This document shows positions 1,224 through 30,800 of a stretch of DNA of 62,841 nt, one piece after another. Source of the stretch: a virus; the IMG/VR virus record IMGVR_UViG_3300035181_001319, positions 1 through 62,841 of that record. One strand, given 5' to 3'. Made by a program: the position numbers and the translations under genes. Position 1 is the first letter of the stretch. Each line of letters opens with the position of its first letter. The notes beneath the pieces were generated by a model. It made no database searches and had not been told where the DNA came from. It was given only the letters and a program-made list of their open reading frames with translations.

Positions 1224-1674
1224 GGCTCACCCATGTGACTTGTACGCCAAGGTTCTCAAGTAGGGTCTTGGCCTGATGTTGCTCGTCAGCCCAACGGCTT
1301 TCTGGATTAATCTGCGCGCACACCAGATGGGAAAGTCGATGCTGTCGAATTGCCAGTGCGCAGTGTAAGCAGGGCGCTGTTGTGGAATAGATGGTCCAGC
1401 CTGCCAGGTCAAAAGGAGCATTTGCCATGGCGTTCTGCTCAGCGTGGATTGTCAGAGCATTCTTCAAATCCTTGTTGCAAAGGACTTCCGGATCATCAGG
1501 CATACCCCAAGGCAGGCCATTATACCCTGCAGAAAATCGCCGACGATCGGTAGAGACCACAAGAGCCCCGACTTGTTTGTCGGGGTCCTTGCTCCACATT
1601 GACACGTTGACGGCCAAGCGCATGAATCGCTTATGCCATTCCATGGGTGAAACGGTGAGACTTTGGCCGATCAT
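1204..1674 (-). CDS. dcd: dCMP deaminase (deoxycytidylate deaminase)
   Basis: 156 residues with the full zinc site of cytidine/deoxycytidylate deaminases: His77-Ala-Glu79 and Pro-Cys102-x-x-Cys105, Glu79 being the proton shuttle. An asparagine-rich substrate loop (GYNGLPWGMPDD) precedes the site as in the phage T4 family. The enzyme converts dCMP to dUMP, feeding thymidylate synthesis. The ATG at 1674 directly abuts the TAA of the ThyA-family gene. The symbol refers to the T4 cd-type deaminase function, not the dCTP deaminase. Confidence 0.9.
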   Translation of the reverse strand: MIGQSLTVSPMEWHKRFMRLAVNVSMWSKDPDKQVGALVVSTDRRRFSAGYNGLPWGMPDDPEVLCNKDLKNALTIHAEQNAMANAPFDLAGWTIYSTTAPCLHCALAIRQHRLSHLVCAQINPESRWADEQHQAKTLLENLGVQVTWVSLEHLFD

Positions 1675-26816: not shown

Positions 26817-27346
26817 GGTTGACTGGTTCCTTGGATAGACGTACCTGAGGTGCGTCGGTTTAGAGGTTGGTAGAGAGGGGAAACCTGACCGACGCACCTT
26901 GAGGATTGCCGACAGTAAGGGGTGCTTCCGTAAGTGTCTGTTTTTATTGCCTTTTGACTCGGCCGACCGTGAAAAACGACAAAAAGTGTTTATGATGTGT
27001 GGGCACGTGTGTGCGTATGCGTCATACATTAATTTTCATTTAAGGTAGGTCGGTATAGTCGAAGGTAGCAAAAACAGGCACTTAGACAGTTTTCAAGGTC
27101 GGCTTTCCATGGTTAAGGTGCGTCGATTTTCTTCAAGGTGCGTCGGTGGTTTTTTGCCCTTGAAGCTCTGAGACAAGCACTGGTCGATTTTTGGTATTGC
27201 TGGGTGTGGATGGTCTACCCACGCCATCAGCTCACAAGTCGCCAAAAACCCATGCTTCAAGCATGAAAAGTTGCCCACGTACACACGGCTTGTGCAAGTT
27301 AGCTAGCCGTGCGACGCACCTAAGGTGCGTCGCTCCAGCGTGTTGT
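26817..27346. repeat. iteron-like repeats of GGTGCGTCG in a gene-free region
   Basis: This 530-base region holds six copies of AGGTGCGTCG[G/A/C]. They are at 26848 (+), 26889 (-), 27115 (+), 27135 (+), 27311 (-) and 27323 (+), with degenerate forms at 27042 and 27094. The 27115/27135 copies are direct repeats 20 bases apart, and 27311-27333 is a perfect 11-bp palindrome with a one-base centre. A seventh copy lies at 30471 (-). A/T-rich stretches lie between them. Such an array suits a replication origin or a cooperative regulator-binding region. A 270-codon plus-strand frame reaching into it has no ribosome site. Confidence 0.6.
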
Positions 27347-27907
27347 TCATGCTTGGCCAGCCGGCTCTTTCGGCACTTCGGTGCTGGACTTAGCGGCTTG
27401 AGCCGCTGCAACCACTTGCTTGATCGCCGCCGGTTTCCGCCGAGCCGGGACGTTCACACCATCACGGCGCAGGTCCATCGCGATGCTGGCAACCGACCGT
27501 TCGGTCGTCTTGGCATCCCAGTAAGTGTCCCGCACCGTCTTGACGATGTCCTTGTAAGGCATTTCGGTCTGGAGCAAGTCCATCACCATCACACCGATCG
27601 CCCCACGCGGCGACTTGGGCCGGTTTGTTTCAAGGGCGACCGGCATTTCGGCCGGTTTTTCGGCACCAGTGTCCGGCTCGTCCGTGCTCGGCGCCAAGTT
27701 GGGCAGCTGCTCCGACACATCATCGTCGGCATACTGGGGATCGCTCGCCGGCGGCAAGTTCGGCTCGGCTGCTTCGGGCTCTTCGTAATACGTCTTCAGC
27801 AGCGTCTCAAGGTCCGAGCGGCTGCGCTTCCAAGAGTCAAGCGGTTGCTTGCCCTCAAGGATACGATAGCCATTCAGGTGCTGCAGCAGTTCTTTGGTCG
27901 GGATCAT
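27347..27907 (-). CDS. protein with acidic linker and small DNA-binding-like domain (186 aa)
   Basis: ATG 27907 preceded by AAAGGAG. N-terminal 40 residues form a helical unit, followed by a Pro/Glu/Asp-rich linker (about 42-98). The recurring domain follows near 100-155 (MVMDLLQTEMPYKDIVKTV, A-K-T-T-E-R-S-V-A-S-I-A-x-D-L-R-R-D-G), then a basic Ala-rich tail. Lying next to the iteron array, it is the best candidate to bind it, but this is inference. Confidence 0.65.
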   Translation of the reverse strand: MIPTKELLQHLNGYRILEGKQPLDSWKRSRSDLETLLKTYYEEPEAAEPNLPPASDPQYADDDVSEQLPNLAPSTDEPDTGAEKPAEMPVALETNRPKSPRGAIGVMVMDLLQTEMPYKDIVKTVRDTYWDAKTTERSVASIAMDLRRDGVNVPARRKPAAIKQVVAAAQAAKSSTEVPKEPAGQA

Positions 27908-28017
27908 GACAGTCTCCTTTGGGTTGATCGTGATTTCACAGTATCACACTTTCTCAGGCTTGTGTCATTGCTTCAGTCAAACGACACAAATGTGATTGAC
28001 TGAAGCAATGTTCCATG
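27908..28017 (-). promoter_or_regulatory. promoter and 15-bp inverted repeat upstream of 27347-27907
   Basis: A perfect inverted repeat CATTGCTTCAGTCAA / TTGACTGAAGCAATG (27966-27980 with 27996-28010) is separated by 15 bases. Just inside it on the minus strand is ATGACA-N17-GATACT, a plausible promoter. The dyad could be an operator or, as RNA, a strong hairpin ending the upstream transcript; no T-run follows. Confidence 0.5.
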
Positions 28018-28239
28018 CTAGTCCTGCATGAACCGCTCGAGGGCAGCAGACAGGTCTTCCACAGTGCCGTCGGGAAGCAGTCCCCACACGCGACCCCACT
28101 GGTCGGCATAGGCCTTGCCCTTGTAGTGGGGGTAGTCATTCGACTGAGCCAAGGGGCTGACCAGTCGTTGCTTGTGATCCAGCACAGTGTTCTCGTCAAG
28201 GATTTGCTTGGACCGGTCGTGGCGTTCAATGAGGTTCAT
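28018..28239 (-). CDS. hypothetical protein (73 aa) behind leader copy 1
   Basis: ATG 28239 is preceded by GGAGAAG, the last part of leader element copy 1. The protein begins MNLIERHDRSKQILDEN and has GRVWGLLPDGTVEDLSAAL near the end. It is the last gene of a four-gene set whose members are separated by identical leader elements or overlaps. Confidence 0.6.
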   Translation of the reverse strand: MNLIERHDRSKQILDENTVLDHKQRLVSPLAQSNDYPHYKGKAYADQWGRVWGLLPDGTVEDLSAALERFMQD

Positions 28240-28245
28240 GGGTCT

Positions 28246-28314
28246 TCTCCAGTGGCTTGGCATCATCAGTGTGGGGAGAGCCACTCCCGCACAGACTGGC
28301 TTACGCCAGTTTCG
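28246..28314 (-). repeat. 69-bp structured leader element, copy 1
   Basis: As RNA (minus strand) it opens with hairpin ACTGGC-GUAA-GCCAGU, then CUGUGCGGGAGUGG / CUCUCCCCACAC pairings, and ends with CCACUGGAGA, the ribosome site of the 28239 start. It has the same length as copies 2 and 3. The GUAA loop is a GNRA tetraloop. Confidence 0.8.
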
Positions 28315-28315
28315 C

Positions 28316-28477
28316 CTACTGGTTCAAATCAAGGGGACTTTCCACTTTGTGAACCAGACTGGACAGGGTGTCAAGCACCATGTCAAAGTCGGAACTTTTT
28401 GCTGCCAGCTTCATGACAGCTTGCAAGACGGTCAGTTCTTCTTGCGTGAGGTTGAGTTGAAAGGGCTCTTCATACAT
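28316..28477 (-). CDS. small protein (53 aa) behind leader copy 2
   Basis: ATG 28477 follows GGAGAC of leader copy 2. The sequence MYEEPFQLNLTQEELTVLQA is helical and resembles the LTPEECVVLRTL segment of the 28539-28712 product, so the two are probably paralogues. Function unknown. Confidence 0.55.
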   Translation of the reverse strand: MYEEPFQLNLTQEELTVLQAVMKLAAKSSDFDMVLDTLSSLVHKVESPLDLNQ

Positions 28478-28483
28478 TGAAAG

Positions 28484-28552
28484 TCTCCAGTGGCTTGACA
28501 TCATCAGTGTGGGGAGAGCCACTCCCGCACAGAAGGGCTTACGCCCTTTTCG
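28484..28552 (-). repeat. 69-bp structured leader element, copy 2
   Basis: Same element as at 28246, but the first hairpin is AAGGGC-GUAA-GCCCUU: two base pairs are changed on both arms so that pairing is kept. The stop codon of the 28539-28712 gene (TAA) lies inside this hairpin loop region. Confidence 0.8.
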
Positions 28553-28712
28553 TCAGTTCAGGGAAGAGCTTGAAGACCAGCTCGTTGAAGGCCACTTCAT
28601 CGTAGTAGCCGTGGCCCAGTTCGTCGTTGTGCCAGTGGAACTCAATGAGGGTCCTCAGCACCACACACTCTTCAGGGGTAAGCCCCTCGATCAGCGAAGG
28701 ATCGTCATTCAT
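28539..28712 (-). CDS. small acidic protein (57 aa)
   Basis: ATG 28712 overlaps the TGA of the 28709 gene. The product MNDDPSLIEGLTPEECVVLR continues FHWHNDELGHGYYDEVAFNE and ends KRA. It shares an LTxEExxVL helix with the 28316 protein. Its stop lies inside leader copy 2. Confidence 0.55.
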   Translation of the reverse strand: MNDDPSLIEGLTPEECVVLRTLIEFHWHNDELGHGYYDEVAFNELVFKLFPELTKRA

Positions 28713-28966
28713 TCCCCATACCCCTTTGCCACCAGCTGCTCATCCACTTTGAGGAACTTGCACATCTTCTTGGCTTGTGACAGGAGGATCGTGGCGTTCA
28801 CGACATGGCCCCAGTTGATGTTTGCTATCATAAGCGGGGTGTCATAGTCCAGTTTCTCGAGGACAAGGGCAAGTCGGATGCGGAGCTCATTGCTGGCCGT
28901 GTTGTAGGCTTCGTGGGCTGTGGGCTTGTCATTGAACTCGGAAATCAATTCGTCAATCTTCTTCAT
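28709..28966 (-). CDS. hypothetical protein (85 aa) behind leader copy 3
   Basis: ATG 28966 follows GGAGAC of leader copy 3. Mostly helical (MKKIDELISEFNDK, then ELRIRLALVLEKL, NATILLSQAKKMCKF). Not recognised. Longer ORFs upstream read through the leader and are not real. Confidence 0.6.
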   Translation of the reverse strand: MKKIDELISEFNDKPTAHEAYNTASNELRIRLALVLEKLDYDTPLMIANINWGHVVNATILLSQAKKMCKFLKVDEQLVAKGYGE

Positions 28967-28972
28967 GGGTAG

Positions 28973-29041
28973 TCTCCAGTGGCTTGGCATCATCAGTGTG
29001 GGGAGAGCCACTCCCTCACAGACTGGCTTGCGCCAGTTTCG
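28973..29041 (-). repeat. 69-bp structured leader element, copy 3
   Basis: Same length and layout as copies 1 and 2. Its first hairpin is ACUGGC-GCAA-GCCAGU: the loop differs but is still GNRA. Copy 3 also has one change in the GUG-A-GGGAG part. Conservation of structure over sequence supports function as RNA. Confidence 0.8.
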
Positions 29042-29045
29042 CCAG

Positions 29046-29294
29046 TCATGCACTGTGTATGTTGCAGTCTTTCCACACCCCATCGGCATAGGTTTTCAGC
29101 CAGATGGAGGAGTGACGAATGGAGGGAAAACAGCCGGGCAAGTTGGAGTAGCGGGCAAACTTGACAATGCTGCCACAACCTGCAGCTTCTACCACCTGCC
29201 GCGCCTCCTCTTCGCTGGAGTAGTCTGCTTCTGCCCTTGTCTCCGCGTAGCGAAGGGGTTCATAACTCGTGACCTGATAGATGGGGGCATACAT
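29046..29294 (-). CDS. hypothetical protein (82 aa)
   Basis: Begins MYAPIYQVTSYEPLRYAETR; its acidic helix (SSEEEARQVVEAAG) and C-terminal aromatic strand (SIWLKTYADGVWKDC) suggest a small alpha/beta fold. It ends four bases before leader copy 3. Function unknown. Confidence 0.6.
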   Translation of the reverse strand: MYAPIYQVTSYEPLRYAETRAEADYSSEEEARQVVEAAGCGSIVKFARYSNLPGCFPSIRHSSIWLKTYADGVWKDCNIHSA

Positions 29295-29306
29295 GGGGAA
29301 GGCCTT

Positions 29307-29510
29307 TCAGATAAGGGACGGGGGACCGACTTGATAGACCATGTAGTCATGCAGCCTACCAAGCCAATGGACATCGTCGTCATGGCTGTCGAGAGCCTGT
29401 GAGATACACTCGATCTCGAGGGCAAGGCACTCCTTGACTGAAAAGGGCTCCATACCCTCAATGGCCCATGTCTCCACAAGGACCCGCTCATACTTGCGTT
29501 TGTTGTCCAT
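29307..29510 (-). CDS. hypothetical protein (67 aa)
   Basis: Starts one base after the stop of the 29512 gene. Helical with an acidic middle (LALEIECISQALDSHDDD). The last residues PSLI recall the SLI end of the upstream protein. Unknown. Confidence 0.55.
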   Translation of the reverse strand: MDNKRKYERVLVETWAIEGMEPFSVKECLALEIECISQALDSHDDDVHWLGRLHDYMVYQVGPPSLI

Positions 29511-29511
29511 T

Positions 29512-29778
29512 TCAGATAAGGGACAGCTGGAATTCAGGAGCTTCGAAGATGGGGAACATGGAGAGTTGGTCCTCGACAGGCTGAGAAATCACTGCCCTTG
29601 CCGAGGCAGCTGCAAGCTTGCCCGCCTTGCGAAAGTCGCGGGCCAAGGAGGCGACAGACTTGTGAGTGGTCTGCGCGGAGGGAAAGTATTCGCGAACCTT
29701 GTCTGCGATGTCTTTGTAGTCATGAGCCCCCTGCGACAGGAGATCGAGAACGCAAACGCTGATGTTACGATAGGTCAT
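29512..29778 (-). CDS. small DNA-binding-like protein (88 aa)
   Basis: ATG 29778 follows TGGAGC; the ORF upstream covers a hairpin. Nearly the whole protein is the recurring domain: ISVCVLDLLSQGAHDYKDIAD, then A-Q-T-T-H-K-S-V-A-S-L-A-R-D-F-R-K-A-G, ending in a hydrophobic tail (QLSMFPIFEAPEFQLSLI). It is closest to the domain in the 27347 protein. A regulator role is inferred. Confidence 0.65.
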   Translation of the reverse strand: MTYRNISVCVLDLLSQGAHDYKDIADKVREYFPSAQTTHKSVASLARDFRKAGKLAAASARAVISQPVEDQLSMFPIFEAPEFQLSLI

Positions 29779-29795
29779 GATTGATTGCTCCACTA

Positions 29796-29821
29796 AAGCC
29801 CACCACCGCGGTGGGCTTAAG
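29796..29821 (-). terminator. hairpin before 29778 start
   Basis: Stem AAGCCCAC / GTGGGCTT around CGCGGTG on the minus strand, followed by TAG rather than a long T-run. It separates the 29838 gene from the 29512 gene and may act as a weak terminator or leader structure. Confidence 0.45.
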
Positions 29822-29837
29822 ATATTCAACCTTTTAA

Positions 29838-30128
29838 TCAGAAGTTGACCGACTGACAGGCAACTTTGATAGATACCATTTTTCTTCTAAGGTCATCAGT
29901 CATGACTACCTGTCTAGACCAGTATGTGACTTTATTGTCACAGACCGTGATTTCTTTTTCGACTTGATAGGCTTGATCAAAGTCATCTCGGACCGAGATA
30001 GACAGTCTATCCAATAGACACCTATTCCTATAATGGTTAAGGTAAAATTGTACTATCTTGTCTTGACTTGGTACTCCTCCGGAGTATGGTTTCCTGGCTA
30101 CCCAGGAGGTATCATATATGTATGCCAT
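29838..30128 (-). CDS. hypothetical protein (96 aa), first leftward gene of the early region
   Basis: Begins MAYIYDTSWVARKPYSGGVP, basic and aromatic. The coding sequence is richer in A/T than its neighbours, with many rare-looking codons, which hints at a different origin. No clear ribosome site precedes it; a leaderless or downstream start is possible. Confidence 0.5.
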   Translation of the reverse strand: MAYIYDTSWVARKPYSGGVPSQDKIVQFYLNHYRNRCLLDRLSISVRDDFDQAYQVEKEITVCDNKVTYWSRQVVMTDDLRRKMVSIKVACQSVNF

Positions 30129-30458
30129 GATGTGTTAGTCTCTTGGTTCTACTGTGTGACTGGTCTGTCGTCTGTTTCATCGTTCGTATATATAAATTAG
30201 CCTGATTTCATTGCGAAGTACACACTGGCACCGGGGTCTCTGGGTGTCCTGTATGAAGGTTTTTACCTCAACTTTTCCCCAGACTTGTCAAAAAGCCCCT
30301 TGTCAAAAATAAAAATGGAAATTTGGCCTCAACTTTTCCCCAAACTGTATAACTGACAACAAGCTTAAGAACCTTGATGGCACAAAACACACCTCAAACA
30401 TTATAAGCTGATCAAGCTGACTGTCAAACATCCAAAAACCGGCAAAGGTTACACACGC
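30129..30458. promoter_or_regulatory. A/T-rich divergent region between early and late genes
   Basis: 330 bases without genes separate the leftward early region from the rightward late region. It holds two copies of CCTCAACTTTTCCCCA (30266-30281 and 30327-30342, 61 bases apart) and two copies of CTTGTCAAAAA (30284 and 30299, 15 bases apart). The latter read TTGACA on the minus strand. TATATATAC near 30190 (minus) and TATAAG near 30400 (plus) are possible -10 sites. I read it as the main early/late promoter switch. Confidence 0.55.
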
Positions 30459-30800
30459 ATGAGAATAAAATCGACGCACCTTGTAATCTTGGCCCTGTTA
30501 TGGGCTCCGAGTCCGTCCCTGGCCGAAAATTGGACGGTATCCTACTACAAACATGGCAAAATTACTGCCAATGGAGAGGCTTTTGACCCTATGGGCGCAA
30601 CCTGTGCGCACAGAAGCCTTCCCTTTGGCGCTCTACTGCGCCTCACAGCCTCCGACGGGACTTCGGTGATCTGTCGTGTGAATGACAGAGGCCCGTTTGT
30701 TCCGGGACGGGAGCTCGACGTCTCATTAGGGCTTGCCCAAATGCTTGGAATGCTTACAGTAGGGGTTATGCATCTAGACATAACGCGCGTAGGAGGGTAA
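30459..30800 (+). CDS. RlpA-like double-psi beta-barrel protein with signal peptide
   Basis: 113 residues. Signal peptide: MRIKS then a hydrophobic stretch to PSLAE near 23. The mature part has the RlpA pattern: SYYKHGKITANGEAFDP, CAHRSLPFGALLRL, CRVNDRGPFVPGRELDVS and the final strand. RlpA proteins cleave denuded glycan strands; the Asp in NDRGP is the key residue. Exported, so likely a cell-wall-acting enzyme used in lysis or entry. Its place at the head of the late operon, before the small terminase subunit, is unusual. An iteron copy (30471) lies in its first codons. Confidence 0.82.
   Translation: MRIKSTHLVILALLWAPSPSLAENWTVSYYKHGKITANGEAFDPMGATCAHRSLPFGALLRLTASDGTSVICRVNDRGPFVPGRELDVSLGLAQMLGMLTVGVMHLDITRVGG

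What the first reader, a model, noticed from the sequence alone, without database searches (positions are those of the whole stretch)
28246..29041. Three 69-bp leader elements with covarying GNRA-capped hairpins
Copies at 28246-28314, 28484-28552 and 28973-29041 have identical length and end in the ribosome site of a small gene. The first hairpin is ACTGGC/GCCAGT in two copies and AAGGGC/GCCCTT in the third, with paired changes. The loop is GUAA or GCAA, both GNRA. This is direct evidence for selection on RNA structure. It may be an autoregulatory or processing element that gives each small gene its own leader.
Basis: seen in the sequence. Interest (0 to 1): 0.75.

Follow-up and report, generated by a model that had tools for sequence, protein, structure and literature searches.

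The report
Three phage type II hammerhead ribozymes
The three repeated leader elements are self-cleaving hammerhead ribozymes of the type II form, packed into the gaps between small early genes of an uncultured phage, where they most likely cut one long transcript into single-gene messages; this kind of phage ribozyme array has been known since 2011.

Summary
In detail: three 69-74-nt elements lie on the minus strand at 28246-29044, 89-95% alike, with compensatory changes. The interpretation missed what they are. Each is a complete type II hammerhead ribozyme (Rfam RF02276; 37.4, 35.5 and 28.7 bits against a cut-off of 37). All have the GAAA and CUGAUGA core, a GUC or UUC cleavage triplet, closed stems I and III, a short open stem II and a loop I/tail pseudoknot. 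Stem II covaries too (GGC/GCC against GAC/GUC).

Each ribozyme fills a gap between genes. The upstream stop codon touches or enters it. After the cut, every downstream gene would start with a 54-nt leader: stem I, pseudoknot, Shine-Dalgarno, 7 nt, AUG. In 81 non-redundant elements, 83% have the upstream stop within 12 nt (random 9%) and 84% have a start with Shine-Dalgarno 10-45 nt after stem II (random 9%).

Most likely role: co-transcriptional cutting of the early leftward transcript into short mRNAs with hairpins at both new ends. Cleavage here is inferred; Perreault et al. 2011 showed it for comparable prophage arrays. Verdict: a new member of a known kind; modest interest.

The parts
28251..28317 (-). 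Type II hammerhead ribozyme, copy 1: stem II GGC/GCC, GAAA, stem III ACUGGC-GUAA-GCCAGU, GUC cleavage triplet (cut between 28294 and 28293), stem I UGUG-c-GGGAG/CUCCC-CACA with loop UGGCU, CUGAUGA, pseudoknot UGGCU:AGCCA
   Evidence: Rfam RF02276 37.4 bits, gathering 37; descriptor; fold gives the three-way junction as MFE
28489..28555 (-). Type II hammerhead ribozyme, copy 2: stem II UGAC/GUCA, stem III AAGGGC-GUAA-GCCCUU, UUC cleavage triplet (cut between 28532 and 28531)
   Evidence: RF02276 28.7 bits, below gathering but E 0.008 in 5 kb; descriptor; compensatory changes in stems II and III
28978..29044 (-). Type II hammerhead ribozyme, copy 3: stem II UGGC/GCCA, stem III ACUGGC-GCAA-GCCAGU, GUC triplet (cut between 29021 and 29020)
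   Evidence: RF02276 35.5 bits; descriptor; MFE fold
28018..28239 (-). 73-aa ORF directly after ribozyme 1 (54-nt leader after the cut, SD GGAGA, 7-nt spacing)
   Evidence: no Pfam or PHROGs family
28316..28477 (-). 53-aa ORF between ribozymes 2 and 1; its stop UAG (28318-28316) touches ribozyme 1
28539..28712 (-). 57-aa ORF; start overlaps the stop of the 85-aa ORF (ATGA); its stop UAA (28541-28539) is the UAA of the GUAA tetraloop of ribozyme 2
28709..28966 (-). 85-aa ORF directly after ribozyme 3; a homologue (42% over 72 aa) lies next to a near-identical ribozyme in L033
29046..29294 (-). 82-aa ORF upstream of ribozyme 3; its stop UGA (29048-29046) is 1 nt from stem II
30400..30427 (-). 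Perfect sigma-70 consensus TTGACA-16-TATAAT, the likely promoter of the leftward transcript that carries the ribozymes
   Evidence: 12 of 12 matches; consensus match only

Best explanation
The elements are three type II hammerhead ribozymes in the gaps of a leftward early operon of small genes. Once transcribed, each folds (stem II open at the gene side, stems I and III closed, loop I pseudoknotted to the tail just 5' of the Shine-Dalgarno) and cuts itself after GUC or UUC. That divides the polycistronic RNA into short mRNAs. Because both closed stems flank the cut in the type II form, the upstream message would gain a complete 3'-terminal hairpin (stem III, with a 2',3'-cyclic phosphate). The downstream message would gain a complete 5'-terminal hairpin (stem I plus pseudoknot, with a 5'-OH) and a 54-nt leader. 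Such ends should resist 3' exonucleases and 5'-monophosphate-dependent RNase E, so the small genes would be expressed and decay independently. Shown: sequence, structure, conservation, position. Inferred: cleavage in this phage, the end chemistry (standard for hammerheads), and the effect on stability and expression.
For: RF02276 matches for all three; every core nucleotide and a permitted NUH triplet present; compensatory changes in stems II and III; 26/26 relatives chosen without regard to stem III keep 6/6 pairs with all four pair types; a model from the copies finds 73 matches in related loci. Gap-filling position: upstream stop within 12 nt in 83% against 9% at random, SD and start 10-45 nt after stem II in 84% against 9%; the same in annotated Streptomyces phages Salutena and Omar. 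Published in vitro cleavage of three tandem prophage arrays, in vivo cleavage in E. coli of the A. tumefaciens triple array, and the pseudoknot's need for fast cleavage (PMC3088659).
Against: No transcript or cleavage data exist for this phage. Copy 2 has a UUC triplet, and the upstream ORF ends inside its stem III loop, so translating ribosomes may compete with its folding. Copies 1 and 3 lie near, and copy 2 below, the Rfam cut-off. Of 28 records with a related capsid gene only two hold a type II hammerhead, both under the cut-off, so the elements are dispensable in the lineage. Effects on stability or translation are not testable here, and predicted Shine-Dalgarno accessibility does not change consistently on cutting.
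Confidence: 0.78

Rival explanations
1. Active ribozymes whose cleavage releases RNA pieces between copies that are re-ligated into circles or spliced messages (by retro-reaction or by an RNA ligase such as RtcB), so that the segment between two ribozymes is the product.
For: Tandem copies 238 and 489 nt apart would release segments with joinable ends; eukaryotic retrozymes with hammerheads make circles (PMC7761336).
Against: Perreault et al. looked for spliced and circular products of prophage arrays and found none. Many related contigs have a single copy (only 23 of 46 source-strand groups had two or more). Each copy is tied to a start site rather than to a repeat unit.
Confidence: 0.07
2. 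A translation switch: the ribozyme fold or its pseudoknot masks or presents the Shine-Dalgarno, and cleavage or a ligand sets the level of the downstream gene.
For: The pseudoknot strand AGCCA lies directly before CUGGAG; in copies 1 and 3 the model frees the SD when the pseudoknot strands are occupied (0.07 to 0.50, 0.21 to 0.43).
Against: Copy 2 shows no such effect (0.41 to 0.37), cutting alone gives no consistent change, and the SD nearly always lies outside the pseudoknot strand. No ligand-binding domain is present in 74 nt.
Confidence: 0.1
3. Inactive relics or a recent duplication kept only because they carry a good ribosome site.
For: Copies are 89-95% alike; copy 2 has a non-GUC triplet and scores 28.7 bits.
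Against: Changes fall in unpaired positions or as matched pairs; the core is intact in all three; the element is 94.6% identical over 74 nt to one in L033, whose neighbouring protein is only 42% identical and whose flanking DNA does not align.
Confidence: 0.04

Closest known systems
Rfam RF02276, Hammerhead ribozyme (type II)
   Same: Core, closed stems I and III, short open stem II, pseudoknot between loop I and the 3' tail; full-length match 1-66 in all three
   Different: Stem I has a 1-nt bulge and GGGAG/CUCCC with a UGGCU loop; an extra nucleotide follows CUGAUGA; copy 2 has a UUC triplet; two copies score under the cut-off
Clustered hammerheads in prophages (A. tumefaciens ardA triple array, Azorhizobium, Clostridium scindens; Perreault et al. 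2011, PMC3088659)
   Same: Several hammerheads flanking single genes or short blocks in phage DNA; proposed to cut long transcripts into gene-length mRNAs
   Different: Different phage and genes; here all three copies are near-identical type II and lie in a cluster of unassigned small genes. The paper's main text does not mention stop codons or Shine-Dalgarno sites
Halovirus HF1/HF2 hammerhead, 13 nt upstream of a helicase start (same paper)
   Same: Hammerhead directly before an early gene, with a transcript end mapped within 3 nt of the cut
   Different: Archaeal virus, single copy, core variant
Type II hammerheads of Streptomyces phages Salutena, Omar and Issmi
   Same: 74-76% identical over about 65 nt, between consecutive small genes (Salutena gp064 ends 1480, ribozyme 1501-1567, RBS 1575, gp063 starts 1587 in L166)
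   Different: Actinobacterial host, other genes; not annotated as ribozymes in the records

Membership tests
Type II hammerhead ribozyme (RF02276) | Conserved core CUGAUGA and GAAA | tested here: met
   Present in all three copies
Type II hammerhead ribozyme (RF02276) | Stems I and III closed by loops, stem II open | tested here: met
   Descriptor and covariance alignment; MFE fold for copies 1 and 3
Type II hammerhead ribozyme (RF02276) | NUH cleavage triplet with the A15.1-U16.1 pair | tested here: met
   GUC in copies 1 and 3, UUC in copy 2
Type II hammerhead ribozyme (RF02276) | Pseudoknot between loop I and the tail after stem II | tested here: met
   UGGCU:AGCCA, 5 pairs, invariant in the three copies and L033, so without covariation of its own here; 70 of 81 elements have 4 or more pairs
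Type II hammerhead ribozyme (RF02276) | Score at or above the curated cut-off of 37 bits | tested here: inconclusive
   37.4 met; 35.5 and 28.7 not, though both are complete and sister copies of the first
Type II hammerhead ribozyme (RF02276) | Self-cleavage | not testable with these tools
   Needs transcription in vitro or 5'-end mapping
Phage hammerhead array for mRNA processing | Several ribozymes in one transcript, each between genes | tested here: met
   Three on one strand, each between a stop and a Shine-Dalgarno site
Phage hammerhead array for mRNA processing | Gene-length mRNAs with ends at the cut sites | not testable with these tools
   No transcript data

The most novel reading that the evidence does not exclude
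Type II hammerheads act in phages as a portable punctuation mark of operons. A unit of about 70 bp spreads between phages independently of its neighbour genes and inserts exactly from stop codon to Shine-Dalgarno. It gives each gene a hairpin-ended single-gene mRNA. The type II topology is kept because it alone leaves a full hairpin on both new ends.
Probability: 0.35. Interest if true: 0.6.

Novelty: new member of a known kind. Interest (0 to 1): 0.36.

Why it matters
What hammerhead ribozymes do in phages is still unproven. This locus offers three near-identical copies in one operon, one with a UUC triplet and an overlapping stop codon, which would suit a side-by-side test. The measured rule that the ribozyme fills the space from stop codon to Shine-Dalgarno in more than 80% of cases gives a concrete prediction (hairpin-ended single-gene mRNAs) that 5'-OH end mapping can check. 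It also shows that the Rfam cut-off misses intact phage type II hammerheads.

Tried and rejected
Intrinsic terminators: none predicted in 27900-30500. Shine-Dalgarno switch: no consistent change in predicted accessibility. Further ribozymes in the window: none by Rfam at E up to 2, by the model built from the copies or by the descriptor. DNA relatives of 27900-30200 among named phages: none. Relatives of the 85-aa protein by back-translated patterns: none; the L033 homologue was found only through its ribozyme. Replication-protein relatives L046-L049: no RF02276 match. Capsid relatives: 2 of 28 with a type II hammerhead, both below the cut-off but complete on inspection. The genome-contig scan used too short a pattern: 100 stretches, only one (L137) a hammerhead by the descriptor. 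The MAFFT alignment A2 misaligns stem I and was not used for pair counts. One pair count had a bracket in the wrong column and was repeated. Small proteins: no Pfam family passing its cut-off.

Full report
The observation. Three copies of one element lie on the minus strand of a 62.8-kb uncultured viral contig (the window's own record is a virus record). They sit in a cluster of small leftward ORFs about 1.3-2.2 kb downstream of a perfect sigma-70 consensus (30427-30400).

What they are. Rfam's type II hammerhead model matches all three over its full length: 37.4, 35.5 and 28.7 bits against a cut-off of 37. Read 5' to 3' on the minus strand, copy 1 is stem II GGC, GAAA, stem III ACUGGC-GUAA-GCCAGU (its first A is the last A of GAAA), cleavage nucleotide C, stem I UGUG-c-GGGAG-UGGCU-CUCCC-CACA, CUGAUGA, u, stem II GCC, then AGCCA. 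AGCCA pairs with loop UGGCU and is followed by CUGGAGA and AUG. The predicted minimum-free-energy fold of copies 1 and 3 is this three-way junction. A descriptor that demands the core, the NUH triplet and stems I-III finds exactly these three in the window and 1 false hit in 3.77 Mb of simulated sequence. A covariance model built from the copies finds no fourth.

Evidence for selection on structure. Among the three copies and the closest outside copy (L033), three base pairs change on both sides: two in stem III and one in stem II. 99% of pair cells are standard, against about 40% when partners are slid by 1-3 columns. The remaining differences lie in the tetraloop, the stem I bulge, the nucleotide after CUGAUGA and one outer stem II position. 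To avoid circularity, relatives were collected from 2.9 million viral contigs with a pattern that fixes the core and the base of stem I but says nothing about stem III. All 26 non-redundant instances have 6 of 6 stem III pairs, with all four Watson-Crick types in variable positions; a random partner gives 5 or more in 1.3%.

Position. The 99 ribozymes in these loci reduce to 81 non-redundant ones. The upstream stop codon ends within 12 nt 5' of G12 in 83% (9% at random positions), and in 26 of 81 it is UAG at one fixed place overlapping or abutting stem II. A start codon with a Shine-Dalgarno site lies 10-45 nt after stem II in 84% (9% at random). The Shine-Dalgarno nearly always lies just 3' of the pseudoknot strand. 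The ribozyme therefore fills the gap between two genes. The same holds in named Streptomyces phages Salutena and Omar, where the records do not annotate it. In the window the three leaders after the cut are each 54 nt with 7-nt spacing to AUG. In copy 2 the upstream 57-aa ORF ends on the UAA of the GUAA tetraloop, so ribosomes of that gene must run through part of the ribozyme.

Distribution. Up to eight type II hammerheads occur in one strand of a related contig (L007). Of 28 records with a related capsid gene, only two hold one, both below the Rfam cut-off but complete on inspection. Among the 31 records searched, the only one with a homologue of the 85-aa neighbour gene is the one with L033. 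There the ribozyme is 94.6% identical over 74 nt while the protein is 42% identical, the flanking DNA does not align, and the ribozyme lies on the other side of the gene. This suits an accessory element that spreads or is conserved separately from its neighbours; gene conversion among copies cannot explain the likeness to L033.

How it most likely works. Hammerheads cut after the NUH triplet and leave a 2',3'-cyclic phosphate and a 5'-OH (established chemistry of the class). In the type II form both stems at the cut are closed hairpins. The upstream message would therefore end in stem III and the downstream message begin with stem I plus pseudoknot (inference from topology). Such ends should resist exonucleases and 5'-monophosphate-dependent RNase E (general knowledge, not tested here). 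Perreault et al. 2011 (PMC3088659) found many hammerhead clusters in prophages, proposed cutting into gene-length mRNAs, showed cleavage of three tandem arrays in vitro and of one in E. coli, and showed that the pseudoknot is needed for fast cleavage. The main text of that paper does not mention stop codons or Shine-Dalgarno sites. Whether others have described that spacing rule elsewhere is not known to me.

Judgement. Interest is modest and comes from the clean triple copy, the copy 2 overlap and the quantified gap-filling rule.

Noticed in passing
window 26848-26857, 26890-26899, 27116-27125, 27136-27145, 27312-27321, 27323-27332, 30472-30481: Seven exact copies of AGGTGCGTCG on both strands, partly as inverted pairs, six within 500 bp downstream of the small-gene cluster and one beside the divergent promoter region; with one mismatch 10 against 3.8 expected. 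Looks like an operator or protein-binding site.
   Followed up: partly
window 30266-30281 and 30327-30342: CCTCAACTTTTCCCCA occurs twice, 61 bp apart, in the stretch between the leftward and rightward gene arms.
   Followed up: no
window 27350-27907 and 29515-29778, minus strand: The 88-aa and 186-aa ORFs on either side of the ribozyme cluster share a domain (50% identity over 48 aa).
   Followed up: no
L004 1166-1210 and 92-156, 1805-1861: A viral contig with a pistol ribozyme between two type II hammerheads.
   Followed up: no
L007 85-3335, minus strand: Eight type II hammerheads in a row in 3.3 kb of one viral contig, nearly all followed by a small gene.
   Followed up: partly
L248 about 1500-1600 (plus) and L249 about 1500-1600 counted on the minus strand: Complete type II hammerheads with pseudoknot and Shine-Dalgarno that score 28.1 and 24.4 bits, well below the Rfam cut-off of 37; the cut-off misses real phage members.
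   Followed up: partly
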